Virus record (IMG/VR): IMGVR_UViG_3300010885_055964
Coordinates: 114,027-178,026 of that record
Direction: 5' to 3' (one strand)
Source of the DNA: a virus
Length of the DNA: 64,000 nucleotides
Both the position numbers and the translations under genes were made by a program. The notes under the pieces are model-generated. The model ran no database searches, was not told where the DNA came from, and saw nothing but the letters and a program-made list of their open reading frames with translations. Positions 30,270 through 58,147 of this stretch are shown one piece after another (position 1 is the stretch's first letter; every line of letters starts with the position of its first letter).

Positions 30270-33215
30270 ATGGCTCAGAATCAGAATCCAACGGCTAGCC
30301 AATCCGTAAAAATGGATAGTCGTAAATTTCTGGGAGCTTTGAACGATTCAGCTCAGGCTCGTATCACATACTTCGAGGACAAGATCGCTAGCATGGGCCA
30401 GCATGCCGGTAAGAATTACCGGCTGGTAGCTCTACATGCTAAAAACTTATACTTTGAGGATATCGACGCCAACAATTTCTATGTGGCTGACCACATAAGA
30501 GATAAGGGTAACAAGGTATCAATTTCTAATATCCGTAAGGTGGACATCGTCGAAGAAGAGAAAGCTTCTCTCTTCGGTGAGTCATGTCTCAAGTTAATCA
30601 ATGCCATCGAAGAGAATGATCAGAAGGGCATGGGAGCGGCATTCAATAGAATGAGTGCCCAACGGTTTTCTAGCCGGGTAGTTCCCTTTTCTGGTATGGT
30701 TAAAGGTAGAGACAATGTTACTCGTAAGATTACGATCTCGAGCAACACGAACTTAAGCGAAGATATTAGACATAAATTGATAAGCACCATAGTCGAGAGT
30801 CTCCGAGATAAGGTGATCGTGGAAAATGGCCAGATAGTAGCAGGCCAGTTTGTAGATGGTGAGGCATTTAAGCTGCCAGTTACCAAATGGGCATCTCGTA
30901 AGCTAGTCGCTCGCAGAATGCGTGAGACAGCCCAGAATGCATATTGGTCAGAGGGCTTTCAAAAGAGGGTCTCTCATTGCGCAAGATTGGTAGCAGAAGG
31001 TAAGATTCAGGATGCCGTAAAATCGGTAACTACTTTCTTGAGCGAGAACGAAGAGTTTACGTTACTCAGACGTGATCAAGTACAGACGTTGATAGAGAAC
31101 GCTCTCGCTACCAAAGCGGTGTTTAATGACCAATTGGCGACTGACACAGCCACGCTATTCTACAGAACCAATATGCGTTTAAGTCGCCATAAGATTATCG
31201 ACGAGTGGAGAAACATAGCAAGAAAGGCAGAGCATCCTGTCTTAGCAGAAAACGTGCACATACTCGAGTCTGCCTCGAATTTCGAGCCGGCTTACGATAA
31301 GTTCTTGACCCTTATCTTTGAGGCATTCAGCAACAAAGATGTGGCTGCTTCGGCTCTAGCGACGACTCTTACCACGTTGATGGACAAGACTCCAAAGATC
31401 AAGGAGTCAAATGAGCTTTCCAGTAAGCTCAATGGTCTTATCAGTCGTCTGTCTGGTAAGGATTGCGATGATGCAGCGATTTATGAAGCTGAGGATTTAA
31501 TAGCGACAATCCAAGAGGAATTGTCTGCTGCTGATTCGCTTAGCAATTTCGATATGATGCCTGGCGATGAGAATGATGTCTCGAGCGTACTGAACAAGGG
31601 CCAAGGCCAAGGCCAGCCAATCATTAATATCAATTCTCCACTTATCCAGATAGGTGGGCAGAGTGGTAAGAATGATCAAACTGAAGATGAAATACCGGCA
31701 CTCGATGATGATAACGACGTTGACGAGCTAAGTGCGTTATTGGGTGCAGGTGATGAAGCTCCAGCACCTGCTCCTGCCCCGGCCCCTGCCGCGAAACCAG
31801 CTGCTGCACCAGCTGCTCCTGCCGCACCAGCCGCACCAGCTGCTTCAGGTAATCCTTTCGAAAGCAAGAAGTCGCGAAAAGCCATCAATGAATCGAGACC
31901 GGTTCATTATGAGATGAGAAGAGATGGTATAGACGATGATATGCCAGAAGATGAAGACAATGTGGAAGAGAGCCGTGACCCATATGCCATAGCCAAGGGC
32001 GAATTAGACATAGCTGAAAGTGGTAGGCTGATGTCCGACTACGGGGCACCAGTTATCAATGATTCAGCAGATGTGCAGCGGATCGTAAAGATCATCAATA
32101 GACTAGCTGAAGAGCACCAGCTCGAGGGTGAGCAGTTGCAGGGTAATCTGGTGTACATGGCCGAAGCAGCAATAAAGGCTATAGGGTTGAGAATACCGGA
32201 AGGCAGAATGAACAAGGCTGTCGAGCAATGCCTAGAAATGTACGAGTCACAGTCTAAGAAGTTGCCAGACTTTATCAAGAATAAGATGAAGGATGATGAT
32301 GACTGTGATGACGAAACTGAAGAGGACATGGCTGAGGATCAGCGTAAGGGTCCCCGGATCAGGAAGAATGGTTATGCTCGTAGTGCAATAGCAGCGAGAG
32401 AACTCAAAGAATCAATCCAGTGGAATCAGACACAGTCTGACGCTTTATTGGGAGAGATGGCCGGTGTCGGGTTCATATTTGACCATGGTGGTGACTCCCA
32501 ATTGAAGCCAGTAATACTGTCTGAGGATGGGTCTGTCGAGATCCCTGTCCCAGAAGAGATTGTGGAAAGTGCTTATGCTAGTGCCGGTTTGTTAGATGGT
32601 GATGGCCGTAAGTTCGAGGGGTGGCTAAGAGGGTCATTGGAACAATTGAGGCCCATCCTTGACGATGAGGACACAGCTCTAGCCGAAGCAATGGCCACAA
32701 TCAGGACTAATCCAGACGGTTCGTTATCTGTCGAAGTCACAGACGATGTAGACGTTCAAGACGTCCCGAGTTCAGATGATCTAGACGATTCTGTCGGTAT
32801 GGCACCAGTGGATTCTGTTACCACATCGGCAGATATTGGTGATGACCTAGGCGACGATGGCGGAATGCCAGACTTTGAGAAATTTGGTGGAGATTCTGAA
32901 GACGAGTCAGAAGATGAATCTGATGAATCTGATGATATGGAATCGGATGAATCTGATGATACGGAATCAGAAGATGATTCAGAGGATGGCTCCGATGAGG
33001 ATGAAGATGAGGACGGGATGTTCGAAGACAAGGACATCACTGACCCTAAGAACTCCAAGTACGCTAAGCATGTCAAGGAAGACCCTCGAGACATGCCAAC
33101 TCCAAAGATGACCAAAGATAGCGATGATAAGTTAGATGGCATCGGACCAGACGTAAAAAAGGATGATGGCACTGGCACCAAGCCACCCACAGCTAGACCG
33201 ATGAGCAAACAGTGA
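30270..33215 (+). CDS. Large acidic prohead core/internal head protein, 981 aa
   Basis: No family recognised. Residues 1-480 are helical and soluble. Residues about 496-527 are an alanine/proline linker (repeats of AP and APAA). A second helical region follows, and residues about 870-920 are an extremely acidic Asp/Glu/Ser run. Position between portal and prohead protease is that of the T4 core proteins. Several [LIV]xE/[AGS] sites (INE/S, VEE/S, IAE/S) could be cut by the gp21-like protease. Acidic, processed, internal proteins are typical of T4-type prohead cores. High expression is suggested by its GC-richer codons. Confidence 0.6.
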   Translation: MAQNQNPTASQSVKMDSRKFLGALNDSAQARITYFEDKIASMGQHAGKNYRLVALHAKNLYFEDIDANNFYVADHIRDKGNKVSISNIRKVDIVEEEKASLFGESCLKLINAIEENDQKGMGAAFNRMSAQRFSSRVVPFSGMVKGRDNVTRKITISSNTNLSEDIRHKLISTIVESLRDKVIVENGQIVAGQFVDGEAFKLPVTKWASRKLVARRMRETAQNAYWSEGFQKRVSHCARLVAEGKIQDAVKSVTTFLSENEEFTLLRRDQVQTLIENALATKAVFNDQLATDTATLFYRTNMRLSRHKIIDEWRNIARKAEHPVLAENVHILESASNFEPAYDKFLTLIFEAFSNKDVAASALATTLTTLMDKTPKIKESNELSSKLNGLISRLSGKDCDDAAIYEAEDLIATIQEELSAADSLSNFDMMPGDENDVSSVLNKGQGQGQPIININSPLIQIGGQSGKNDQTEDEIPALDDDNDVDELSALLGAGDEAPAPAPAPAPAAKPAAAPAAPAAPAAPAASGNPFESKKSRKAINESRPVHYEMRRDGIDDDMPEDEDNVEESRDPYAIAKGELDIAESGRLMSDYGAPVINDSADVQRIVKIINRLAEEHQLEGEQLQGNLVYMAEAAIKAIGLRIPEGRMNKAVEQCLEMYESQSKKLPDFIKNKMKDDDDCDDETEEDMAEDQRKGPRIRKNGYARSAIAARELKESIQWNQTQSDALLGEMAGVGFIFDHGGDSQLKPVILSEDGSVEIPVPEEIVESAYASAGLLDGDGRKFEGWLRGSLEQLRPILDDEDTALAEAMATIRTNPDGSLSVEVTDDVDVQDVPSSDDLDDSVGMAPVDSVTTSADIGDDLGDDGGMPDFEKFGGDSEDESEDESDESDDMESDESDDTESEDDSEDGSDEDEDEDGMFEDKDITDPKNSKYAKHVKEDPRDMPTPKMTKDSDDKLDGIGPDVKKDDGTGTKPPTARPMSKQ

Positions 33216-33229
33216 TAATGGAGGCTGTG

Positions 33230-33964
33230 ATGATACCAACTAGAAAACGAGTCGCCGACATAATGCGTGCTTCTAATTTTGACAGAAGAGTGATAGCAGA
33301 GACTGGTGTTCTGCCGGTTGGCTCCAAGTTGATAAGAGACACTTTTGCATTCGATGTCATAGACAAGAAAGAAGTAGTTATTGAGGGCAAGAATGGGTCG
33401 GAGATACCTGCGATGCGGGTGTCTGGTCTGATACAGATGGGCGATCGTGAAAATGCGAATGGTAGACTATACTCTACTGCTGAGGTTTTAAGGCCAGCAG
33501 TTCAGAATATACAGGAAGATATTCAGTCCAGGGCTGTGATGGGTGAATATGATCATCCAGCAGACGCCAAAATACATCTAGATAGAGTCAGTCATTTGAT
33601 GACTAAGGTATGGATGGACGGCAGAAAGGTGTATGGCGAGGCAGAGATATTATACAACCTGCCGTGTGGTGCTTGCTTGCGTGGACTATTCGAACATAAA
33701 GTCAGAGTTGGCATATCATCACGCGGTGTAGGCGATATGGAAGTAGTTGAGAGTTCTGGTAAAGAACTATACCGCGTAATGCCAGGATACAACTTTGTCA
33801 CATGGGATGCTGTTGCCGAACCTTCAGTAAATGGGGCAATACTTAATATTCAAGAGGGATTAGCACGTAAGATAAAGCCATTGAGCAATAATAAACATAA
33901 ATTTAATCCTGAATTATATCAGGGTATATTAGTTAAAGAAATAAACAAATATTTTGGTCTGTAA
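33230..33964 (+). CDS. 21: Prohead core protease (gp21-like serine protease)
   Basis: A 244-residue protein. His109 in MGEYDHP and Ser163/Ser164 in VGISSRGVG match the catalytic histidine and serine region of the T4 gp21/herpes-assemblin-like prohead protease fold. The preceding LIQMGDRENANGRLY segment is also typical. It cleaves scaffold, core and capsid proteins during head maturation. I prefer ATG 33230 because GGAGG lies five bases upstream; GTG 33212 and ATG 33218 are also in frame and would overlap the core gene. Confidence 0.85.
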   Translation: MIPTRKRVADIMRASNFDRRVIAETGVLPVGSKLIRDTFAFDVIDKKEVVIEGKNGSEIPAMRVSGLIQMGDRENANGRLYSTAEVLRPAVQNIQEDIQSRAVMGEYDHPADAKIHLDRVSHLMTKVWMDGRKVYGEAEILYNLPCGACLRGLFEHKVRVGISSRGVGDMEVVESSGKELYRVMPGYNFVTWDAVAEPSVNGAILNIQEGLARKIKPLSNNKHKFNPELYQGILVKEINKYFGL

Positions 33965-33978
33965 CAAATAGCTTGGCT

Positions 33979-34011
33979 TAACCTCGTCTAGTATATAACC
34001 AGGCGAGGTTA
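33979..34011 (+). promoter_or_regulatory. Hairpin hiding the ribosome binding site of the nuclease-GNAT gene
   Basis: Arms TAACCTCGTCT (33979-33989) and AGGCGAGGTTA (34001-34011) pair almost completely. The second arm contains GGCGAGG, the only plausible ribosome binding site for ATG 34013. The loop holds TATATAA, close to the promoter-like motif seen elsewhere. In T4, I-TevI and some other genes have just this design: read-through mRNA hides the site, while late transcripts starting within the hairpin expose it. There is no U-run, so a plain terminator is less likely. Confidence 0.6.
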
Positions 34012-34012
34012 T

Positions 34013-35587
34013 ATGATAGACTGGACTCTTTCTAATTATAATGTGAATAATGTAAAGAATCGATGTATAGTCATAGTAGTATGTGAATCCTGTGATCGAA
34101 AACGTGAACAATCGTATCAAGTGGCTAAGAGAAAGCCTACACATATATGTATGTCTTGCGTTCAATCTAAAAATAAACATGGTAATTTTAAAACTGGCCA
34201 ATTAGTCATTCATAGATGTACTTGTGGTATAGAGAAGGAATTAAAATACAGACCAAATAGATATGAAGGATGGCAATGCCACCATTGTGCGATGGTGCAG
34301 GGTCACAAGGATGGTAAATTTAAGATAACCCGTAATGTACCATCAGAGGAAGGTAAGAAGAGATTATCTATTATAGCCAAGCAGAGATGGAATGATCCAG
34401 CGTATAGGGAAACAATGGCTGCTAAAAAAGCAGCTTCTAGGGACAAAAGATCCGCGATATCCAAACGACAGTGGTCGGATGATGATAGATTAAGGGCCTT
34501 GTCAGAGTCACTTAAAAAATTATGGCTAGATGAAGAATATAGGGCTGTAAAGACCAATCAAAGTAGGCAGCTATGGTCAAATGAACTATACATAGAAGCA
34601 CAATCCAATGGTTACAATAACGATGTAAGAAGAACCATATCTGAAAGTAGTGCAAAAAGATGGCAGGATGATAGCTATAAAGAGAAAATGGTTCACTATA
34701 GAGCTAATCAACCTAGGGTAAGTAATATACAGGTTTTACTATACAAATTGTTAGATGATTTGAATGTGACTTATTTCAAAGAAGGATCAGAAACAGTAAT
34801 AGGACCATATTCATTTGATTGTCTGATACCTGCCAAGAAGAAGTTATTAATAGAGTGTCAAGGAGACTATTGGCATACTTTGGAAAAGGCGGCGAGTAGA
34901 GATAGAGCCAAGTTTACTTATATTAATAGATATTTCCCAGAACATGAAATAATGTATATCTGGGAACACGAATTCTATGCTAAAGACAAGGTGTTAGGGC
35001 GGCTAAAACACAAACTAGGAATAGATATCTTAGTAGAGGAATATGACTTTAGTGATGTAACGATTAAAGATGATATCAAAGCTGCAGATATAAATAACTT
35101 TTTAGATGCATATCATTATATTGGTAAAGGTAGATCTGGGCATAATTTTGGAGCTTATTTAGGTGATCAACTAATTGGTTGCGTCGTATACTCTAATTTA
35201 GTTAGACAAAATATTGCACACCAATTTGATGGATCGTGTGTTGAATTGTCTAGGTTATGCATCCATCCCAAATATCAAAAGCATAATTTAGCTAGTTATT
35301 TTGTTTCGAGGACATTTAAAAACCTAAAATATAACAATGTGGTGAGTTATTGTGATACTACTGTTGGACATACAGGAGCTGTCTATAAGTCGCTTGGGTT
35401 TACATTGCACCATGAGGTAGATCCTGATTATTGGTATGTTGATATTAATGGGTGGGTAATGCATAAGAAGACATTATATGAGCGTGCTAAGAAAATGAGC
35501 ATCAAAGAGAATGATTACGCTCACCGATTTGGATATATTAGGATATATGGCGGCAAGAAATATTGCTTTGTCAAGCAATTATATTAA
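34013..35587 (+). CDS. Vsr-like nuclease fused to a GNAT-like domain (putative homing protein), copy 1
   Basis: A 524-residue protein with several parts. Two zinc ribbons (C24/C27/C46/C49 and C69/C71/C89/C92) come first. Repeated DNA-binding units with a RWND..YR-like pattern follow (about residues 105-235). A Vsr/PD-(D/E)xK-like nuclease core has D269 in FDCL and IECQGDYWH (E281, Q283, H288). A GNAT-like domain follows (about 360-480; HPKYQKHNLASYF and VYKSLGF). The tail (MHKKTLYERAKKMS) is shared with copy 2 at 38566. It sits between protease and scaffold genes, as a mobile gene would. The GNAT part recalls Mom-like DNA-modification acetyltransferases; that link is a guess. Confidence 0.65.
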   Translation: MIDWTLSNYNVNNVKNRCIVIVVCESCDRKREQSYQVAKRKPTHICMSCVQSKNKHGNFKTGQLVIHRCTCGIEKELKYRPNRYEGWQCHHCAMVQGHKDGKFKITRNVPSEEGKKRLSIIAKQRWNDPAYRETMAAKKAASRDKRSAISKRQWSDDDRLRALSESLKKLWLDEEYRAVKTNQSRQLWSNELYIEAQSNGYNNDVRRTISESSAKRWQDDSYKEKMVHYRANQPRVSNIQVLLYKLLDDLNVTYFKEGSETVIGPYSFDCLIPAKKKLLIECQGDYWHTLEKAASRDRAKFTYINRYFPEHEIMYIWEHEFYAKDKVLGRLKHKLGIDILVEEYDFSDVTIKDDIKAADINNFLDAYHYIGKGRSGHNFGAYLGDQLIGCVVYSNLVRQNIAHQFDGSCVELSRLCIHPKYQKHNLASYFVSRTFKNLKYNNVVSYCDTTVGHTGAVYKSLGFTLHHEVDPDYWYVDINGWVMHKKTLYERAKKMSIKENDYAHRFGYIRIYGGKKYCFVKQLY

Positions 35588-35596
35588 TATTATCTG

Positions 35597-35605
35597 TCAA
35601 ATATA
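35597..35605 (+). promoter_or_regulatory. Candidate late-promoter element (TCAAATATA)
   Basis: GTCAAATATAAATATAA lies 31 bases before ATG 35628 and also contains TATAAATA, the T4 late-promoter consensus. This is the best single promoter candidate in the window. Confidence 0.5.
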
Positions 35606-35627
35606 AATATAACCAAAGGAGAATTAT

Positions 35628-35975
35628 ATGAAGGTATCTAGTGAATACGGACCTTTACATGTGAATATGCTTGCTTCTAGCGTTAATAAGTCGATGAAAA
35701 CAGTATATTTTTGGATAATGAATACTTTAAATCCCAAAGAGAATATTACATTTGGGTTTGAACATGATTCGGTTTATGTGGGAGCTAGGGCTGACGTCGA
35801 GGGTTCATCTGGGGTATATGGTTGGGCATTGATAGCCCACCGAGATGGTACTGCAACACTTCAAGTAAGAGATGAAAAAGGTGGTGCAGTAACAGTAGAC
35901 TTGCTTAAGGCCGCTAGGGTTTTGAAGCGGCTTATAGATGCTGAAGATACTAATGCTAGCCAAGACGATGAATAA
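35628..35975 (+). CDS. Hypothetical protein, 115 aa
   Basis: Unrecognised. Strong AAAGGAG site and the T4-like TATAAATA element are directly upstream. Beta-rich centre, acidic C-terminus. It lies between copy 1 of the nuclease-GNAT gene and the scaffold; it could be a small head protein. Confidence 0.6.
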   Translation: MKVSSEYGPLHVNMLASSVNKSMKTVYFWIMNTLNPKENITFGFEHDSVYVGARADVEGSSGVYGWALIAHRDGTATLQVRDEKGGAVTVDLLKAARVLKRLIDAEDTNASQDDE

Positions 35976-36070
35976 TAAAATACCTGGATTTAATCAAAGA
36001 TATATAGTAAATAGGGAATGCTCGACTCAGGCAAAAATAACATTACACGTTATCAGTGAGGAGTTAAGAG

Positions 36071-36790
36071 ATGGATAAGATTAAGGCGCTTCTCGAAAAA
36101 GCTGGTGTCAAGAGTGAGTTGGCTGACCAGATATGCGAGTCGCTGGCCAATTATAAGACATCTCTACGTCAACAATTCAATCAAGAGTATGCTGCTAAGG
36201 TCGAGCAGGCCAAGAAGGTCTGCGTTGAAGAGACTGAGGCGCATAAGAGAGAACTTGCACGTCGTGTGCAGATTTGGTGTGAAACGAAGGGGACAGCGAT
36301 CGAGGCACAACTTGCTAGGCAGTCGGCCCTTAACGAATCCGATGCCATGTCCAGGCTAACCCGCATAGTAGGATTACTAGAGGGTATTGAGCCAAATGGC
36401 GGGCAAAGCGGTGAAGTTACAGCCACAATAGAGAAGCTCAAGCAACAGGTCAAAGTCGCATCTGAGGGGAAGGTTCAAGCAATCGAACTTGCTAATCGCA
36501 AGACAGCGATTGCAGAAAAGGCTCTTAAGCGTAACCGGCAATTGGCAACTGCTCTGAAGACACTCGAAGAGCGGAAGCAACAGGCCCGCCCTGCTAATAC
36601 CGTTTCGGAAGGAAGGGTACCAGCAAAGGCAGCCCGGATTGATCAGTCACGTGATTCTGGTCGTTCCAGATCAACTAGAGCTACCCTCACTGAGAATCAG
36701 GATCGTCGTCCAGTGCAGCAGCAAAGACCGTCGACTAATGGTTTCAGCATCGACAACATTGCCGCTGACATGGACAGCGATCTAGTTTAA
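36071..36790 (+). CDS. 22: Prohead scaffold/core protein (gp22-like)
   Basis: A 239-residue, almost fully helical coiled-coil protein with charged heptads from residue 20 to 180, then a disordered Arg/Ser/Gln-rich segment and a short acidic end. Position between protease and major capsid matches T4 gp22. Candidate protease sites include LNE/S, LLE/G and VSE/G. The scaffold shapes the prohead and is degraded before packaging. A GAGGAG ribosome site precedes the ATG. Confidence 0.75.
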   Translation: MDKIKALLEKAGVKSELADQICESLANYKTSLRQQFNQEYAAKVEQAKKVCVEETEAHKRELARRVQIWCETKGTAIEAQLARQSALNESDAMSRLTRIVGLLEGIEPNGGQSGEVTATIEKLKQQVKVASEGKVQAIELANRKTAIAEKALKRNRQLATALKTLEERKQQARPANTVSEGRVPAKAARIDQSRDSGRSRSTRATLTENQDRRPVQQQRPSTNGFSIDNIAADMDSDLV

Positions 36791-36840
36791 CTTGTACTTG
36801 ACCCAATAACAGAGCATTTTTTTATTTAGGAGCAACAAAG

Positions 36841-38469
36841 ATGGCACTGGCTAGAACTGGTAGAACTGGAATGAGCAGAACTGGAATGAGCAGAACTGGA
36901 ATGAGCAGAACCGGTTGGACCGGCAGACACCTACAGAACCGTATGGTTACTGAGGCTTCCGATCCCCATCGTGCATCTGTCGTGCTCGAGTCCAAGAAGA
37001 ACCAACTCGTTAAGAAGTGGTCGCCAGTTCTTAACAAGTGCCGTGAGGTTCCCAAGGCCAAGTTCGGCCTGATGGCTTCGATCCTGGAAAACCAGTACAA
37101 TGCCTGGAATCCAGGTAATCGATCGATGCTGTTAGAGGATCAGACCACCACGGCTAACATAGCAGACTTCACCCGGTTTGCTCTGCCCCTGATTCGCAAG
37201 TCGTATCCCAAGCTCATTGCTGACAATCTGGTTGGCGTTCAGCCAATGAGCCAGCCAGCAAGCTTGATCTTCTACATCAGATATCGTTATGCCCTTTCCA
37301 AGGGTCAGACGGTAGCTGGTACGCAGATCATGCGTCAGAACACCGCCCAGAGCTACTCACGCTCTAACGGTTGGGCACTCGATCCTTACTACAGCTCGCA
37401 AGAGGTTCGTGGTGAGGACGCTACGGTTGCTGGCGATTTGATGAACGTATCAGCCACCCTGGCACACCGACCAGTTCTTGCTGGTACGGTAGTGGTCGAG
37501 GTGTTTGCGAGTGAGAACGACGCAAGTCCCAACTGCGATGACGCAGTACCTTGCCTCAGAGTGGGCTTCAACAGTGCTGGCGATCCGGACGTGGTGCTAA
37601 TCGGTGACTGCACCGAGTTTACTTCGACCCTAGCAGTAAACGAGTCTGGTTCGAACTTCAATCACGCTACCGGTGCGGTTAATATCGCACTGTCGGGTGG
37701 TTCTTTCCCAGCTGGTGCTGTGGCACGGGTTAACTACGAGTACGATCTCGAGGCTAACCCTTTCCAGCCAGAAGTGACCATGAGCATCGACAGTGATAGC
37801 GTTTCGGCTATACAACGTAAGCTCAAGACCAGCTGGAGCTTGGAGGCGGCTCAGGATCTTAAGGCTGTTCACAACATCGATGCCGAGAGCACTCTCACCG
37901 ACCTTATGGCCGATGAGATGGTCGCGGAACTCGATCGTGAAATCATCAATGACTTGATCATTGCTGCAGCTATCCGTGCTGAGCACAACTTCGCGACCGC
38001 AGCCGGTGCTTCGGTTAACTTCACAGACCGCAACATCGCTCTGATGTACAAGGCTCTGGAAGTTGCCAACATCATCCACCGTACCACTCTCCGTGGTCCG
38101 GCTAACTGGATGGTGATGAGTGCTGACCTCTGCAGCAAGTTCGAGCAGTTGAACGATTTCCGTGCCAGTGATGCTTTCAGCACCGAGGGTGTTGACATCG
38201 GCATCATGAACGTCGGGACTGTTCAGGGCAAGATGAAGATCTACAAGGATCCACTCTTCCCAAGCTGCAAGATCCTTCTAGGGTTCAAGGGTAGCAGCGT
38301 CCTCGACGCTGGTTACTTCTACGCTCCCTACATTCCGTTGCTAAGCACCCCGACCGTGATGGATCCCAACAGCTTCACCCCAAGCAAGGGCATCATGACC
38401 CGCTACGGGAAGAAGCTCATAGAGGACGGTGGTCTTTACTACGGTGTGATCACTGTCAGCAACCTCTGA
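36841..38469 (+). CDS. 23: Major capsid protein (gp23-like)
   Basis: A 542-residue protein with the most GC-biased, optimised codons in the window and a strong terminator right behind it, both signs of very high expression. Position after protease and scaffold matches gp23. NIADFTRFALPLIRKSYPKL and ADNLVGVQPMSQPASLIFYI are typical of the T4-type capsid N-arm and start of the HK97 fold. The first 30 residues contain an RTGMS tandem repeat. VTE38/A39 and VLE50/S51 fit the prohead protease consensus, so the repeat-bearing tip is probably removed in the mature head. Confidence 0.87.
   Translation: MALARTGRTGMSRTGMSRTGMSRTGWTGRHLQNRMVTEASDPHRASVVLESKKNQLVKKWSPVLNKCREVPKAKFGLMASILENQYNAWNPGNRSMLLEDQTTTANIADFTRFALPLIRKSYPKLIADNLVGVQPMSQPASLIFYIRYRYALSKGQTVAGTQIMRQNTAQSYSRSNGWALDPYYSSQEVRGEDATVAGDLMNVSATLAHRPVLAGTVVVEVFASENDASPNCDDAVPCLRVGFNSAGDPDVVLIGDCTEFTSTLAVNESGSNFNHATGAVNIALSGGSFPAGAVARVNYEYDLEANPFQPEVTMSIDSDSVSAIQRKLKTSWSLEAAQDLKAVHNIDAESTLTDLMADEMVAELDREIINDLIIAAAIRAEHNFATAAGASVNFTDRNIALMYKALEVANIIHRTTLRGPANWMVMSADLCSKFEQLNDFRASDAFSTEGVDIGIMNVGTVQGKMKIYKDPLFPSCKILLGFKGSSVLDAGYFYAPYIPLLSTPTVMDPNSFTPSKGIMTRYGKKLIEDGGLYYGVITVSNL
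36862..36906 (+). repeat. Tandem 15-base repeat at the start of the capsid gene
   Basis: Three exact copies of AGAACTGGAATGAGC encode RTGMS three times, followed by a degenerate fourth unit. Copies are identical at the DNA level, so this is a recent slippage-type expansion in the predicted removable N-terminus. Confidence 0.85.
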
Positions 38470-38500
38470 GAACAAGCCCTTAATAAGGCTAATAATAAGA

Positions 38501-38529
38501 AACCCGGCCCGAAAGGGCCGGGTTTTTTT
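38501..38529 (+). terminator. Rho-independent terminator after major capsid gene
   Basis: A perfect 10-base-pair stem (AACCCGGCCC / GGGCCGGGTT) with a GAAA tetraloop followed by seven T residues. It ends the head operon just before the second nuclease-GNAT gene. Confidence 0.95.
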
Positions 38530-38565
38530 ATGTATTTAAATGTGACTCGTTATGGGAAGAACATA

Positions 38566-39993
38566 ATGCCAATACCAGTTAAAGATCAGTTTACTAATGA
38601 TCAAATACAAGATATAAAAACCTTTTTTAATCAAGGGAAAACCAGAGCAGAGATAGGAGTAATTTATAATAAACCACCTAGGACTATAGGGAAGTTATTA
38701 AATATTTTAGGAATTAAAAGATCACATTCCGAGGCTGCTAAATTAAAAATATTTTCACCAATAGACAATATGGAATCTATAACTATAATAAAGTCAATGC
38801 GTAATACTCATAAGCTAGAAGATATAGCGACGAGCTTAAACTCTTCAATTAGTGCTGTTCAGAGGATATGCAAAAAATATGCTATAGATTTACCAACAGA
38901 CTATCAAGAGCAGCAGGCGAAGAGGTTAAGGGATGCTTGGACCAATAGCATGAAAGAAGTAGCTTCTGTAAAATCAAAACAAAGATGCACCGAAGATATA
39001 AGGAATAAACTAAGCAAGGCTTCTAAACTAAGGTGGAAAGAAGATAAATATAGAGAGGTCCAAGCCGAGCATAGGTCCAAACAAGCTTTTAATATATCAT
39101 CTATTCAACAATATTTGTACGACATTTTGGATGATATAGGGGTAAAATATTATAGAGAATACAAAGACAAGCAGAATGATCCGGAGACTGTTATTGGGCC
39201 ATATAATTTCGATTGTGTGATACCAAGAAATAATAAACCCACTCTTTTGATCGAATGCCAGGGAGATTATTGGCACACAATAGATAAAACTATAAGGAAA
39301 GACAATCAGAAAAGTTCATATATATCCAACAACTTTGCGAATGAGTATGAACTGAAAACATTGTGGGAACATGAATTCAAATGCCACGATAAGATCATGG
39401 AATTATTAAAATATTGGTTGGGTATAACCAAATTGGAAGTAATAGAATATGAGTTGAATCAGGTTATTATTAAGAAAATAGACGTTAAGGAAGCTAATAC
39501 TCTACTAGACAAATATCATTACTTGTCTGGGTGTGGTAGAGGAGGAATTATCTATGGTGCGTATCTAGATGATAGATTAATAGCTGTTTGTTGTTTTTCA
39601 TCATTAATTAGACAAAATCTGCCATATGATCATATTACTAGTAGGGAATTGTCTAGGTTCTGTATACATCCTAAATATCAAATGAAAAATTTTGGTAGTT
39701 GGTTTATAGCACGATGTATAAAACTTCTTCCGGCCAGCATTAGTTTAATCATATCATACTGTGATACTACATTTAATCATGATGGGGCTTTATACAAGGC
39801 ATGTAACTTCTCATTCGATGGCATGGTGCGACCAGATTATTGGTATGTTAATCAAACAAGATGGATTATGCACAAAAAGACTTTATATAAGCATGCGAAG
39901 AAGATGTCTATGACAGAGGTAGAATTCGCAGATAAGAATGGTTATAAGCGAGTGTATGGATCTGAGAAGTTAAGATTCATATATCGAAGGTAA
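38566..39993 (+). CDS. Vsr-like nuclease fused to a GNAT-like domain (putative homing protein), copy 2
   Basis: A 475-residue relative of the protein at 34013. The N-terminus differs: helix-turn-helix-like units (TNDQIQDIKTFFNQGKTRAE, then a second HTH near residue 80) replace the zinc ribbons. Then come one RWKEDKYR-type unit, the nuclease core FDCVIP..LLIECQGDYWH, and the GNAT-like part with HPKYQMKNFGSWF and ISYCDTTFNHDGALYKA. The same C-terminal MHKKTLYKHAKKMS follows. ATG 38566 has GGGAAGA five bases upstream; the ATG at 38530 lies in the terminator's T-run and is unlikely. It lies directly behind the capsid terminator, as an inserted element would. Confidence 0.65.
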   Translation: MPIPVKDQFTNDQIQDIKTFFNQGKTRAEIGVIYNKPPRTIGKLLNILGIKRSHSEAAKLKIFSPIDNMESITIIKSMRNTHKLEDIATSLNSSISAVQRICKKYAIDLPTDYQEQQAKRLRDAWTNSMKEVASVKSKQRCTEDIRNKLSKASKLRWKEDKYREVQAEHRSKQAFNISSIQQYLYDILDDIGVKYYREYKDKQNDPETVIGPYNFDCVIPRNNKPTLLIECQGDYWHTIDKTIRKDNQKSSYISNNFANEYELKTLWEHEFKCHDKIMELLKYWLGITKLEVIEYELNQVIIKKIDVKEANTLLDKYHYLSGCGRGGIIYGAYLDDRLIAVCCFSSLIRQNLPYDHITSRELSRFCIHPKYQMKNFGSWFIARCIKLLPASISLIISYCDTTFNHDGALYKACNFSFDGMVRPDYWYVNQTRWIMHKKTLYKHAKKMSMTEVEFADKNGYKRVYGSEKLRFIYRR

Positions 39994-40288: not shown

Positions 40289-43200
40289 ATGAGAATAGGT
40301 ATTATTGCAGAAGGCCCACGAGATGATACTAAATCATTATTATATAATAGGTTAGTCCAACGGGTGAAGTTGGCCGGATATCACTTTAAACCAATCAACT
40401 ACCGCAGCACATATAATCCCGTGGCGTGGTTTGCCAGGGTGGTACCAGACGATCCCGAGCTAGAGAAGGCGATGGGGCATGGGAACGTGATAGACATAGG
40501 TATTGTCAATGGTGAGCCAGGTCTGCGTGTGCAACAAATGGGTCATGCCACTACTTGGGAGCAATTAGAAAAGCTTATAAAACTGCGTATTGAGCGGGAA
40601 AAACGGCTATATAGTAAGGGTGCTGCATCGGTTACCAAGGCAAAGGGAATCATAGATATTCTCGATGGTTGCTGGTCTAAAAACTCTTCTACAGGCATGG
40701 TCGGTGGGTTAGTTCAGACCAAAGTTAATGATTCAGGTAGTGGGGTAATTTATCGTAATTATCTCGGTGGGTTAGTTCAGACACCAGTTAATGATTCAGG
40801 TAGTGGGGTAATTTATCGTCATTATCATTTTTCTACTCCTCAATTATCACATGCCGATTTTGAAGGGATTAGTGTATCGATAAAGGGGGCAATTATAGTA
40901 CCATTGCAAGTAGCTCGTGCAGCATCTACAGTATTTGAATACACTGCCACCGTCCGGATGTCCGTAGGGCCTATAGCCGACGGGAAATATCATGAAATAA
41001 CACTAAGCATGCATTCGAAAGTACACCCGTCTAATATAACTACATTGTTTTCCACTGAGTCTACGAAAGCGGAAGAGAGTTTACGCCAGATATCGATATC
41101 GAAGTTCAATATAAATAACAATTATCATACGTGGCCATCGGTCCGTGAGATTACTGATCTATCAAAACACATCACACAATATGGTGTGAAGATATATGTG
41201 CCGAATAATGATCTAAAAGATTATGTAAACAAAAATGTCTTGCGTGTGCTGCAAATGTTGGTTACTGGGGTGAGAATGCCAGAAATTGATATACCCCAAT
41301 CCATGGCTGAATTGAGTAGAGTGCTGCGTTCTTATCGGGCTGAGGATGAATGGTATCAACCTATAAAAGCCAAAATCGAGGATTACCTGCCAACCTACGA
41401 TCCTAATTCTGGCACGGTCAGCCGCCAAATGTCAGCTAATTCTGACGAGTTAAATTTATCGATGAACACAGATTACGGTCGCGTCAAAGTCAAGCTTGAT
41501 CGTCCTGATGATACAGGCATGCATTTGATCAAAATAGAACCTGAACAGACCGATGGTATAACTGATGACAAGCATCTTACTGCCAAGATCACATCTGAAC
41601 AAGCGTTGGATTTTTTCGATACAGTTAACTCGATGCTCGAAAAAAGCATTGTGGGAGAGAATTACAGACGAAAACTAGATATGATTTTTGAAGATGATTA
41701 TGACGATATCGGGGAAGATCTTACCGCCCAAATTAAAGAGGTCCTCAAGGACGCGATTCGGAAACACCCAGAGATTCAAGTGAAACGAAGTAACTACGTT
41801 CAGAAGGGCAATTTACACGGTCTGTTTACACTCTCTCACCCTAATGCCAAAAGATCCTTAGATATCTTGGATAATGGCAATCTGGTGGTTGGTTCTTACG
41901 GTAGCAAAAAGAGAGAGGTGAATACAGATGCGGAACTTGAGGCGGCCATCGACGACTGGGTAACTGGCAAAACAAGGAAAGCTCCTCGTGGTCCTGCGGC
42001 TCCTCCAACAGATCGGAACCTTAACCAAATTAAACAGGTAAGCAAAAGAACAGGACGCGTTGTTGAGGTGCCAATATCTTCCTTCTTCCCATACAACGTG
42101 CATCGATTGAATAAAAAGATACCGGGGGTACTAGTCTCCAAAGGCAAGCCATTCACCCTCGCTATAAGTGCCAGAGACATAGACATACCAAGTGAAATAT
42201 TTAGCAGTATGGATTTGCATCGTTTCAGCAAAGTCATCAAATCTCCTCAGGACATAGACCAAGGTCCCTCGTACAAGCACCTAGGTTGGATAGGCGGTAC
42301 CGTCGACGGTACTAGCATGCACATTGACGAGGTCCAGTCAGACCTAATGCAGCGTACTATAGAAATGACTAATCAGGAACAATTTGACATAAAGAATACT
42401 AAAACTATCGAAGATATCAAGTCTATGATTGGTCAGAAGCGGCGAGAATTAGCTACAATGAAGCGTGAGTACCAGCTAGCTCCGGTCAGTCACCGCCTCA
42501 GATTAGCTCAGGATATTAATCATGCGGTAAAAGAATTAAAGACTGCTCAAAACAACGCAGCACGGAGATATAAACTAACCGATTTTTCGCAATTCAAATC
42601 AAAGGTCGAGAATTTTTACAAGAACTGGATAGATGCCTTCTACCATGCTTGTTTTAATTATGCCCGCAAGAATGGAGTCACAGATGTTTACATTATCTCT
42701 AGTGCTATGATCAGTAAAATTTGGAGCAAGGCAAGAGGGAAAGAAGAAGAGGAAGGGAGCATATATTACCGGGCTTATGACAAGGTTGCCCAAAATCTGG
42801 GTGCTGAGAAGGTTGATGACAAATGGTGGCATATTAAATTGGATAAAATCACGCAACGTGAAGCGAAGGATCTCGAGCTGATTTCGTCGTTGCTTACCGA
42901 ACATGTGCTGTTGGAATGGGATGGGGTCGACATACGACGAATACTACAATGGTTGGAGCACGCTGGTTTTACCGTTAGCGAGATCCACGGTGCACATCAG
43001 GAAGGAGACTTTAGAAACCTCAGTATGATGGTCTCCAAGATTATCGATGGTCAGGCGATAACGACTCAAGAATATACTGATATCAATCCTGAGCAGTTAC
43101 AGAGGGCACTCAGTTTCGTGCAGTACGACGTTTCAGCAACACCGGTAGAGGAGAACGAGTACGAAGTTGAAGAATTAAAGCGTGACGCAGCGATATTAAT

Positions 43201-43447
43201 TACTGCGTACAAGATGATTGGCGATATTCCTTGTGGTATCGCAATCGCGAGTATGGAAGACCCTAACATGGAAATGTTTGTACACGAGCCAGAGAGTGCT
43301 GGTATAGGGTACGGCGGGGTGGATTTATTAAATAATCCTGGTTATGAGGAAGAGAAATATCAGGATGATCAAATGACCGATGCCGATCTGTTTGGCTTAT
43401 CACCCGAAGAAATGGACGACATATGGGATCGGCACGGTAATACTTAG
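40289..43447 (+). CDS. Large multidomain protein with EVQSD motif, 1052 aa
   Basis: No overall family recognised. A 21-residue tandem duplication lies at about residues 139-180. The middle (residues about 660-860) contains HLGWIGGTVDG, HIDEVQSDLMQR and a later helix YHACFNYARKNGVTDVYI. EVQSD/EIQSD segments of this kind recur in large polyvalent proteins of phages that are thought to be injected or virion-internal. The end is acidic. It has its own candidate promoter and sits just after the head module, so a head-internal, injected protein is my best guess. No catalytic site is certain. Confidence 0.6.
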   Translation: MRIGIIAEGPRDDTKSLLYNRLVQRVKLAGYHFKPINYRSTYNPVAWFARVVPDDPELEKAMGHGNVIDIGIVNGEPGLRVQQMGHATTWEQLEKLIKLRIEREKRLYSKGAASVTKAKGIIDILDGCWSKNSSTGMVGGLVQTKVNDSGSGVIYRNYLGGLVQTPVNDSGSGVIYRHYHFSTPQLSHADFEGISVSIKGAIIVPLQVARAASTVFEYTATVRMSVGPIADGKYHEITLSMHSKVHPSNITTLFSTESTKAEESLRQISISKFNINNNYHTWPSVREITDLSKHITQYGVKIYVPNNDLKDYVNKNVLRVLQMLVTGVRMPEIDIPQSMAELSRVLRSYRAEDEWYQPIKAKIEDYLPTYDPNSGTVSRQMSANSDELNLSMNTDYGRVKVKLDRPDDTGMHLIKIEPEQTDGITDDKHLTAKITSEQALDFFDTVNSMLEKSIVGENYRRKLDMIFEDDYDDIGEDLTAQIKEVLKDAIRKHPEIQVKRSNYVQKGNLHGLFTLSHPNAKRSLDILDNGNLVVGSYGSKKREVNTDAELEAAIDDWVTGKTRKAPRGPAAPPTDRNLNQIKQVSKRTGRVVEVPISSFFPYNVHRLNKKIPGVLVSKGKPFTLAISARDIDIPSEIFSSMDLHRFSKVIKSPQDIDQGPSYKHLGWIGGTVDGTSMHIDEVQSDLMQRTIEMTNQEQFDIKNTKTIEDIKSMIGQKRRELATMKREYQLAPVSHRLRLAQDINHAVKELKTAQNNAARRYKLTDFSQFKSKVENFYKNWIDAFYHACFNYARKNGVTDVYIISSAMISKIWSKARGKEEEEGSIYYRAYDKVAQNLGAEKVDDKWWHIKLDKITQREAKDLELISSLLTEHVLLEWDGVDIRRILQWLEHAGFTVSEIHGAHQEGDFRNLSMMVSKIIDGQAITTQEYTDINPEQLQRALSFVQYDVSATPVEENEYEVEELKRDAAILITAYKMIGDIPCGIAIASMEDPNMEMFVHEPESAGIGYGGVDLLNNPGYEEEKYQDDQMTDADLFGLSPEEMDDIWDRHGNT
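40702..40827 (+). repeat. Two-copy 63-base tandem duplication inside a gene
   Basis: Copies at 40702-40764 and 40765-40827 differ at only a few bases and keep the frame, encoding two units of GGLVQT.VNDSGSGVIYR. A recent duplication. Confidence 0.9.
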
Positions 43448-45506: not shown

Positions 45507-45577
45507 TGCCTGATGGTGTAACGGTAGCACAAAGGATTTTGGTTCCTTTTGTCTAGGTTCGAATCCTAGTCAGGCAA
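45507..45577 (+). tRNA. tRNA-Gln (anticodon UUG)
   Basis: A full cloverleaf. The acceptor stem is TGCCTGA/TCAGGCA. The D arm contains TAACGGTAG. The anticodon stem AAGGA/TCCTT holds loop TTTTGGT (anticodon TTG), and the T arm is CTAGGTTCGAATCCTAG. Discriminator base A; CCA is not encoded. A lone tRNA in this window; it matches the frequent CAA codons of this AT-rich phage. A hairpin (45446-45478) lies before it. Confidence 0.95.
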
Positions 45578-56566: not shown

Positions 56567-58147
56567 ATGTCATCTTCATTACTACCTAACGACAACGCTT
56601 CATTTTTGCCGATCACGCCTACAGATGGGCAGAGGTTCTCAGACGCGCAGGGCGTGCAATGGATTTACTGTGCACAGAAAAGAGTATGGGAAAAGAGAGG
56701 AGTAGTCGATAGTATACCGGTAGCGACAAGCACACAACCTGGCTTATTGCCCGCACGTTTGAAAAAAGTAATAGACAGAGTTCCAGCAGTGGGTGGTGGC
56801 TTCGGGATTATAGCTGATACCAAGACCATATTAAAAAGTCCTACTAATCCTAATGGTGTAATCACTGGTGATATTAAGTTAGTAAGTGAAAGCTTACGCA
56901 TCAGATGTGTAGATGCTCAGTCCAAGAAGATAACTCCTACTTGCAGCTCTATCGAGATATTAGACTGTGGTGGTGAGAACGTCACTGGTAATAGAGCCGG
57001 TCTTGAATTCTCACTAAGCACTAAATTTCTTAATACCTTATTTATAGATGCAGCAGGAGATAATGGCAAGAAAGGCGTAGATGGAGAAAAAGGCCCGACA
57101 GGCATCCCAGGATATGACTACACTGGGCCCAAAGGCAATCGTGGGTCTAAAGGTAGAGATATATCAACATTATGTCAATTAGATGGTATATTGATCAATG
57201 ACATAGAAGGTATGGCAGACAGTGCTATAGTCGACTTACAGATTAAGGACGATAATGGGCACGGATGCAAATTAATAGTAAACAAAGCCAAGCTAAATCT
57301 AGAAGGTAATCGGCCAGTCGATAAGTTAATAGCTACTAGGCTAAGCCGGACTATAGTTTATAAACCGAGTGATTTCGAGAGCTGTACTGTAAATTCTCTA
57401 GACAAGTGGCAACTTAAAAAGGCTGCTGGTGATACCACACGGCTCAATTTACAACTAGTGCGTTTCGCTAAATCACCAGAAGGAGACGTAGAAAGCCCAG
57501 CTTCATTTAATAGCACGATATCACTGAATACTTTTATTAATGGCATTGTAGCAGAATACAAGAAGAGGTTACAAAAAGTCGATAATCAATGGGGGCAGCA
57601 AGTTAGGCAGTATATTAATGAGTTAGATAACAAAGCTAGAACTATATTATCACAATTAGCTGATGACCTGACACAATGTGAGTTTGCTCTACCAGCTATC
57701 GATTATTGCATTACATTTGAGGAGTGTGGGGGACCAAACCCGCCTCCGCCTCCGACGCCTCCGCCTCCGACGCCGCCGCCTCCGACGCCGCCGCCTCCGA
57801 CTCCGCCGCCGACTCCACCTCCGGTGCCGCCTCCGGCACCTCCGGTGCCGCCTCCTGCGCCTCCGGTGCCGCCTCCTGCGCCTCCGGTGCCGCCCCCTGC
57901 ACCGCCGGTTCCGCCCCCTGCACCTCCGGTGCCGCCCCCTGCACCGCCTGTGCCGCCCCCTGCACCGCCTGTGCCGCCCCCTGCACCGCCGGTGCCGCCC
58001 CCTGCACCGCCGGTTCCGCCGCCATCTAGTCCGCAGGCACAGGCTTCGAAACGAGCCACTGATGTTAACTTACACCAACAGAACACTAGTGTACAAAATG
58101 TGACGATAATCGGTATGGGCAAGAGAAAATGGAACATCAAACTGTGA
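56567..58147 (+). CDS. Collagen-like, polyproline tail-fibre protein
   Basis: A 526-residue protein. The N-terminal region (VQWIYCAQKRVWEKRG) resembles the start of other phage fibre proteins. Collagen-type triplets (GEKGPTGIPGYD, GPKGNRGSKG) lie near residues 170-200. A coiled-coil-like helix follows, and then a 95-residue polyproline stretch before a short beta end. Likely a trimeric fibre or whisker. I start at ATG 56567; a TTG at 56549 would only add six residues. It overlaps the next fibre gene by 19 bases. Confidence 0.72.
   Translation: MSSSLLPNDNASFLPITPTDGQRFSDAQGVQWIYCAQKRVWEKRGVVDSIPVATSTQPGLLPARLKKVIDRVPAVGGGFGIIADTKTILKSPTNPNGVITGDIKLVSESLRIRCVDAQSKKITPTCSSIEILDCGGENVTGNRAGLEFSLSTKFLNTLFIDAAGDNGKKGVDGEKGPTGIPGYDYTGPKGNRGSKGRDISTLCQLDGILINDIEGMADSAIVDLQIKDDNGHGCKLIVNKAKLNLEGNRPVDKLIATRLSRTIVYKPSDFESCTVNSLDKWQLKKAAGDTTRLNLQLVRFAKSPEGDVESPASFNSTISLNTFINGIVAEYKKRLQKVDNQWGQQVRQYINELDNKARTILSQLADDLTQCEFALPAIDYCITFEECGGPNPPPPPTPPPPTPPPPTPPPPTPPPTPPPVPPPAPPVPPPAPPVPPPAPPVPPPAPPVPPPAPPVPPPAPPVPPPAPPVPPPAPPVPPPAPPVPPPSSPQAQASKRATDVNLHQQNTSVQNVTIIGMGKRKWNIKL
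57740..58024 (+). repeat. Polyproline repeat region in fibre gene
   Basis: Codes for residues 392-486: first PPPPTPP-type units, then nine copies of VPPPAPP and a final VPPPSSP. The 21-base units are similar but not identical (GTGCCGCCCCCTGCACCG and variants), so the array can grow by unequal exchange. On the minus strand it reads as an artificial glycine-rich frame. Confidence 0.9.

What the first reader, a model, noticed from the sequence alone, without database searches (positions are those of the whole stretch)
34013..39993. Two related Vsr-like nuclease plus GNAT-like fusion genes placed in and after the head module
Genes at 34013 and 38566 share the nuclease core (LIECQGDYWH), the GNAT-like region (a YCDTT..HxGA(V/L)YK pattern) and the C-terminal tail. 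Their N-terminal DNA-recognition parts differ: zinc ribbons plus RWND-type repeats against helix-turn-helix units. A swap of recognition parts on one shared nuclease-acetyltransferase body is what one expects of a family of free-standing homing genes, or of a modification-linked nuclease in which the GNAT part resembles Mom-type DNA modification. Why a homing nuclease should carry an acyltransferase-like domain is unexplained.
Basis: partly seen in the sequence, partly recalled or inferred. Interest (0 to 1): 0.78.

Follow-up and report, generated by a model that had tools for sequence, protein, structure and literature searches.

The report
Phage homing nucleases fused to DNA-modifying domains
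Two genes that jump between phages each encode a DNA-cutting enzyme joined to a DNA-marking enzyme; the same spots in related phages hold unrelated cutters joined to other marking enzymes, which suggests these mobile genes carry their own protection against self-cutting.

Summary
Both genes (34013-35587; 38566-39993, open from 38530) share a nuclease plus a C-terminal GNAT body (40% identity, E 3e-98) on unrelated N-termini. A profile of the family matches two PDB families at credible E-values: phage Mu Mom (8bv8) and the EDxHD homing endonuclease I-Bth0305I (3r3p). Catalytic residues of both domains are nearly invariant in about 75 relatives, including Mom Ser124 (HEN2 S390).

They behave as free-standing homing genes. 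The protease/scaffold site is empty in 30 of 59 related phages. HEN1's ribosome-binding site lies in a hairpin with a late-promoter-like loop, as in I-TevI and mobE. The N-terminal part predicts the insertion site: 18/18 HEN2-type N-termini follow the capsid gene, on several different bodies.

The Mom-nuclease fusion itself was already reported (Iyer 2021, read as restriction-modification). What appears new is the pattern at one locus. After the capsid gene, nucleases of EDxHD, LAGLIDADG, HNH and PD-(D/E)XK types are each fused to Mom or to a methyltransferase. Best reading: homing endonucleases carrying their own protective DNA modification. Homing is well supported; self-protection is inferred. 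Twelve loci there carry HNH genes with no modification domain, so it is not obligatory.

The parts
34013..35587 (+). HEN1, 524 aa: zinc ribbons + RW.D..YR repeats + EDxHD nuclease + Mom-like domain, between prohead protease and scaffold genes
34082..34288 (+). HEN1 two zinc ribbons (C24,C27,C46,C49; C69,C71,C89,C92), presumed target-recognition part
   Evidence: read from sequence; this N-terminus (E below 1e-8) found only in nuclease-Mom genes after the protease gene
34718..35044 (+). HEN1 EDxHD nuclease domain (E257, D269, E281, H288, D297, K300)
35072..35551 (+). HEN1 Mom domain (Y367 H368 Y369, R414, S428 = Mu Mom S124, D448)
33979..34011 (+). RNA hairpin covering the HEN1 Shine-Dalgarno sequence, with late-promoter-like GTATATAA (33991-33998) in the loop region
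   Evidence: counterparts in L003, L004, L005, L007
38566..39993 (+). HEN2, about 475 aa from 38566 (ORF open from 38530): HTH units + EDxHD nuclease + Mom-like domain, directly after the major capsid gene
38569..38883 (+). HEN2 N-terminal HTH part, shared (E below 1e-20) with other post-capsid genes that have unrelated bodies
39091..39429 (+). HEN2 EDxHD nuclease domain (E210, D228, E242, H249, D258, K261; numbering from 38530)
39442..39990 (+). HEN2 Mom domain (Y329 H330 Y331, R376, N387, S390 = Mu Mom S124, D412)
38500..38529 (+). Intrinsic-terminator-like hairpin after the capsid gene; HEN2 begins just behind it, with a TATTTAAAT box that resembles a late promoter
   Evidence: sequence printed; the box is an inference
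33212..33964 (+). Prohead (head maturation) protease, left flank of the HEN1 site
   Evidence: PHROG 207; synteny
36071..36790 (+). Presumed scaffold gene, right flank of the HEN1 site
   Evidence: no PHROG hit; position and synteny
36841..38469 (+). Major capsid protein, left flank of the HEN2 site
   Evidence: PHROG 138 E 1.5e-81

Best explanation
HEN1 and HEN2 are free-standing homing endonuclease genes of a T4-like phage. The variable N-terminus finds a site at a conserved head-gene junction, the EDxHD domain cuts DNA lacking the element, and repair copies the element in. The fused Mom domain, guided by the same N-terminus, chemically marks adenine at or near the element's own target so that carrier genomes are not re-cut. 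The element is thus a homing endonuclease with restriction-modification-like self-protection in one chain. Well supported: both catalytic domains are conserved, insertion is at specific sites, the N-terminus sets the site, and HEN1 expression looks late-gated. Inferred: the exact target, that Mom is targeted by the N-terminus, and that the mark blocks the partner nuclease.
For: Homing: the protease-scaffold gap is under 110 bp in 30 of 59 distinct relatives, HEN-filled in 9 and filled with other inserts in 20. The post-capsid site likewise varies in occupant, and T4 segD sits at the corresponding place, next to gene 23 (PMC2988022). The nuclease profile hits I-Bth0305I. HEN1 has the RBS-hairpin with a late-promoter loop described for I-TevI, segB and mobE; a strict scan finds it in 4 of 70 family genes (all HEN1 lineage) against 1 of 1238 other genes. 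N-terminus sets site: 18/18 HEN2-type N-termini (E below 1e-20) follow the capsid gene, on EDxHD-Mom, PD-(D/E)XK-MTase and other bodies; among loci fetched with nuclease queries only, the test gave 8/9 versus 0/61 (p about 1e-9), the one exception being a weak match (E 0.019). Modification matters: in about 77 proteins D228, H249, D258, K261 and Mom H330, R376, N387, S/T390, D412 are nearly invariant. At the post-capsid site LAGLIDADG, HNH, TnsA-like and short PD-(D/E)XK nucleases are each fused to a methyltransferase with invariant DP..GWG.R and TSPP(F/Y); all 22 non-HNH nuclease genes there have a modification domain. Carriers keep the conserved capsid 3' end unchanged (98.5% match, no fixed difference), so if that is the target, sequence drift does not protect them.
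Against: No activity is known for any of these proteins. The true target is unknown; if it spans the interrupted spacer, insertion alone would protect. Twelve loci have single HNH genes at the same site without a modification domain, so protection by modification is not obligatory. Several loci keep the methyltransferase but have a degraded or missing fused nuclease (L072, L074, L080, L081), so the modification domain may have a role of its own. Mu Mom modifies many sites, not one.
Confidence: 0.55

Rival explanations
1. Phage-borne restriction-modification weapon, as proposed by Iyer et al. 2021 for jumbo-phage Mom-REase fusions: Mom marks the whole phage genome, and the nuclease destroys host or superinfecting phage DNA. 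Mobility is incidental.
For: PMC7824862 section 3.4.7 describes the fusion and this reading. Mu Mom acts on many sites. Both domains are conserved.
Against: The nuclease belongs to a homing family. The N-terminus tracks one insertion junction across unrelated bodies, which a general weapon does not need. Late-gated translation is typical of homing genes. Two copies with different N-termini in one genome would need compatible marks.
Confidence: 0.2
2. Ordinary homing endonuclease; the Mom domain is a passenger anti-restriction enzyme that helps the host phage and so helps the element persist, without protecting against its own nuclease.
For: Stand-alone Mom and stand-alone MTase genes are common in phages. 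MTase-only remnants persist at the site. Single HNH genes at the site lack a modification domain.
Against: Fusion recurs with four nuclease types and two unrelated modification chemistries at one site; all 22 non-HNH nucleases there are fused. A passenger benefit would not require the same chain.
Confidence: 0.2
3. The C-terminal domain is catalytically dead and serves only in DNA binding or folding.
For: GNAT folds are sometimes re-used as non-enzymatic modules (general knowledge).
Against: Residues matching Mu Mom catalytic S124 and other Mom positions are invariant or S/T only in about 75 proteins; an unrelated methyltransferase with intact motifs takes the same place.
Confidence: 0.05

Closest known systems
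Mom-REase fusions of jumbo phages (Iyer et al. 2021, PMC7824862); annotated 'Hef-like homing endonuclease' in Campylobacter phages, PA5oct, K64-1; PHROG 3339
   Same: Same nuclease-Mom order; phrog_3339 spans nearly the full length; many copies per genome in Campylobacter phages
   Different: That paper reads them as restriction-modification and, in the passages found, does not discuss homing, insertion sites or the methyltransferase counterparts
I-Bth0305I, EDxHD homing endonuclease (PDB 3r3p)
   Same: Nuclease core and catalytic positions
   Different: I-Bth0305I is listed as a mobile-intron protein and the solved chain is the nuclease domain only; here the gene is free-standing with Mom attached
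Phage Mu Mom (PDB 8bv8)
   Same: Fold and sequence, S124 equivalent conserved
   Different: Mu Mom is a separate protein without nuclease or N-terminal DNA-recognition part
T4 free-standing homing genes segD, segB, mobE
   Same: segD lies next to capsid gene 23; segB and mobE share the RBS-hairpin and late-promoter device
   Different: Different nuclease folds (GIY-YIG, HNH); no modification domain described in the review read
Type IIG restriction-modification enzymes
   Same: Nuclease and modification activity in one chain (general knowledge)
   Different: Defence enzymes with short frequent sites; not site-specifically mobile; different domain order

Membership tests
EDxHD homing endonuclease (I-Bth0305I family) | Nuclease domain homologous to I-Bth0305I | tested here: met
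   Profile E 1.2e-4 to 3r3p, one of three PDB matches; PADLOC homing-endonuclease model 2.8e-6 for HEN2
EDxHD homing endonuclease (I-Bth0305I family) | Catalytic E, D, H, D residues | tested here: met
   E210 (63/77), D228, H249, D258 nearly invariant; E210 varies to D/Q/H/K in some relatives
Free-standing homing gene | Site-specific insertion with empty sites in relatives | tested here: met
   30 empty, 9 occupied by the family, 20 other inserts at protease-scaffold
Free-standing homing gene | Biased inheritance after cleavage of element-free genomes | not testable with these tools
   Needs mixed infection
Mom DNA-modification family | Mom/GNAT fold and sequence | tested here: met
   PF25680 1.4e-17 in both, 8bv8 best fold match
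Mom DNA-modification family | Catalytic serine and other Mom positions | tested here: met
   S390/S428 align to Mu S124; S or T in 76 of 77
Mom DNA-modification family | Modified adenine in phage DNA | not testable with these tools
   Needs mass spectrometry or long-read sequencing
Restriction-modification system | Modification blocks the partner nuclease at the same sequence | not testable with these tools
   Needs biochemistry
Vsr mismatch endonuclease | T:G mismatch repair role, close sequence match to Vsr | tested here: not met
   No Vsr family in the Pfam, PHROG or NCBIfam results; the PDB profile search returned I-Bth0305I, not Vsr. The repair role itself was not tested

The most novel reading that the evidence does not exclude
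Phages carry a general class of self-protecting homing elements, in which an interchangeable homing nuclease (EDxHD, LAGLIDADG, HNH or PD-(D/E)XK) and an interchangeable DNA-modifying enzyme (Mom or an amino-methyltransferase) share one N-terminal target-recognition part. They spread by cutting unmarked genomes while marking their own, so the target need not be destroyed by insertion.
Probability: 0.45. Interest if true: 0.82.

Novelty: new variant of a known kind. Interest (0 to 1): 0.64.

Why it matters
Homing endonucleases are normally thought to spare their own genome because insertion, or a sequence difference, removes the target. A homing element that protects itself by chemical marking could target conserved coding sequence without disrupting it, and would link homing genes to restriction-modification systems. 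It also gives a concrete role for many orphan Mom and methyltransferase domains in phages, and a natural set of parts in which recognition, cutting and marking modules have been exchanged.

Tried and rejected
The weak Pfam MTES_1575 hit was superseded by the direct I-Bth0305I match. A strict scan for the RBS-hairpin in all family genes found it only in the HEN1 lineage, so it is not a general trait; L006 has no significant fold (z 1.0) and L003 was not picked up by the strict scan though it folds well. Weak HTH matches (E above 1e-4) in L054, L071, L089, L005, L162, L052 and L125 were dropped from the N-terminus claim. A body tree was only partly resolved; it shows the HEN1 clade (100/99) separate from the wide clade holding HEN2 and L089, so protease-site members have more than one body origin, but it does not date swaps. 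Long MTase proteins outside the capsid site were checked: several are LAGLIDADG_2 plus methylase, while L201, L222, L226 and L216 had no recognisable nuclease. NCBIfam gave nothing above cut-off for HEN1 or HEN2. Literature searches for homing endonuclease with a Mom or methyltransferase domain found no prior description beyond Iyer 2021, in an open-access library only. Sandegren 2005 on Hef was not held, so whether T4-type Hef carries Mom is unknown to me.

Full report
What is there. The window lies in a 178 kb virus record with a T4-like head module: portal, a 981-aa protein, prohead protease, presumed scaffold, major capsid protein. HEN1 (34013-35587) sits between protease and scaffold; HEN2 (38566-39993) sits directly after the capsid gene and its terminator. 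These are the only two copies in the record. They align at 40% identity over the nuclease and C-terminal regions, and their N-termini are unrelated.

Domains. Both proteins hit Pfam Mom (1.4e-17), the PHROG Mom-like family and a PHROG homing endonuclease family. A profile of 18 relatives searched against the PDB returns Mu Mom (8bv8, 4.4e-6) and I-Bth0305I, an EDxHD homing endonuclease (3r3p, 1.2e-4), plus one weak hit at E 0.36. The AlphaFold model of HEN2 (pLDDT 83) has Mu Mom as its best PDB match (E 3.7e-10). 8bv8 is the inactive S124A mutant; reading the Mu gene itself shows the serine, and it aligns to HEN2 S390. In about 77 distinct family proteins the nuclease residues D228, E242, H249, D258, K261 and the Mom residues H330, Y331, R376, N387, S/T390, D412 are nearly invariant. 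Both activities are therefore probably under selection.

Mobility. Of 59 distinct relatives with both flanking genes, 30 have protease and scaffold genes less than 110 bp apart, 9 have a nuclease-Mom gene there and 20 have other inserts. The left boundary in the window is right at the protease stop codon; on the right the spacer box GCAAAAATAA before the scaffold gene is preserved. HEN1's ribosome-binding site lies in the 3' arm of an 11-bp hairpin with GTATATAA in the loop region; in L004, L005 and L007 the loop holds TATAAATA, the T4 late-promoter consensus. A strict scan finds this device in 4 of 70 family genes and 1 of 1238 other genes. The T4 review PMC2988022 describes the same device for I-TevI, segB and mobE, and places segD next to capsid gene 23.

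N-terminus and site. The HEN2-type HTH part (E below 1e-20) occurs in 18 distinct proteins, all following the capsid gene, on EDxHD-Mom bodies (8), PD-(D/E)XK-methyltransferase bodies (L065, L070, L186), a TnsA-like body cut by the contig end (L094), and six others (HTH-only ORFs, one cut by the contig end). Five of the 18 were used to build the model; 13 were not. Among loci fetched only with the nuclease proteins as query, the test gave 8 of 9 against 0 of 61, p about 1e-9; the exception is a weak match. The HEN1 zinc-ribbon part (E below 1e-8) occurs only in protease-site genes, and in the body tree these do not form one clade.

The same site, other cutters, other markers. In 61 distinct post-capsid loci: 7 EDxHD-Mom; 5 LAGLIDADG-methyltransferase; 2 TnsA-like-methyltransferase; 3 EndoVII/HNH-methyltransferase; 8 short PD-(D/E)XK-methyltransferase; 5 with a double-HNH gene beside a separate methyltransferase; 12 single HNH without a modification domain (some contigs end soon after); 5 truncated; 15 without any of these (one locus holds two). 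The methyltransferase part has invariant DP..GWG.R and TSPP(F/Y) motifs in all 16 aligned, weak N6/N4-methylase Pfam hits and a class I methyltransferase fold. LAGLIDADG_2-methylase fusions also occur elsewhere (L199, L203, L205, L209, L213).

Interpretation. A DNA-marking domain fused to several unrelated homing nucleases at one site, in two unrelated chemistries, is best explained by a need tied to cutting: marking the carrier's own target. The carriers' capsid 3' ends match non-carriers at conserved positions (1374 of 1395) with no fixed difference, so if the target lies there it is still present in carriers. This step is conditional on an unknown target. The HNH genes without a modification domain, and loci in which the methyltransferase remains while its fused nuclease is lost, show that the link is neither obligatory nor one-way.

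Known and new. Iyer et al. 2021 reported Mom-REase fusions in jumbo phages and read them as restriction-modification; annotators call them Hef-like homing endonucleases. I found no paper joining these two views or reporting the methyltransferase counterparts at the same locus, within an open-access library only.

Noticed in passing
40289-43447; L003:7815-10814 (- strand): The 1052-aa gene after HEN2 has a 55% identical homolog in L003 on the opposite strand directly after HEN1, so it seems to relocate among these sites; it carries a 63-bp tandem duplication at 40701-40826. No Pfam or PHROG hit.
   Followed up: partly
36841-36911: The capsid ORF begins with a 15-bp tandem repeat (36862-36911); many homologs align only from about residue 28, so the real start is probably downstream.
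   Followed up: no
L048:8393-8896, L061:8432-8935, L063:3186-3689: 168-aa ORFs made only of the HEN2-type HTH part, near the capsid gene after an HNH gene: remnants, or free DNA-binding competitors of the homing element.
   Followed up: partly
L072, L074, L080, L081 after the capsid gene: Methyltransferase intact while its fused nuclease is missing or degraded, beside a double-HNH gene; looks like separated cutter and marker genes or immune alleles.
   Followed up: partly
L004:7517-10131, L006:7526-8266: Other genes, some methyltransferase-like by eye, inserted between HEN1 and scaffold, as if cargo accumulates at the site.
   Followed up: no
35602-35609: TATAAATA late-promoter-like box 26 bp before the 115-aa gene that follows HEN1; that gene also lies downstream of HEN1 (84% identity) in L003.
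   Followed up: no
L013:9714-11402: HTH protein with a methyltransferase-like domain whose catalytic motifs are gone.
   Followed up: no
L184:91-1785 (- strand), L143:661-2151: Diverged EDxHD proteins with DUF723-type repeats and a GNAT-like C-terminus, suggesting the nuclease-GNAT pairing is wider than this family.
   Followed up: partly
45507-45577; 57740-58020: A tRNA-Gln gene (TTG), and a long low-complexity 15- and 21-bp repeat array.
   Followed up: no
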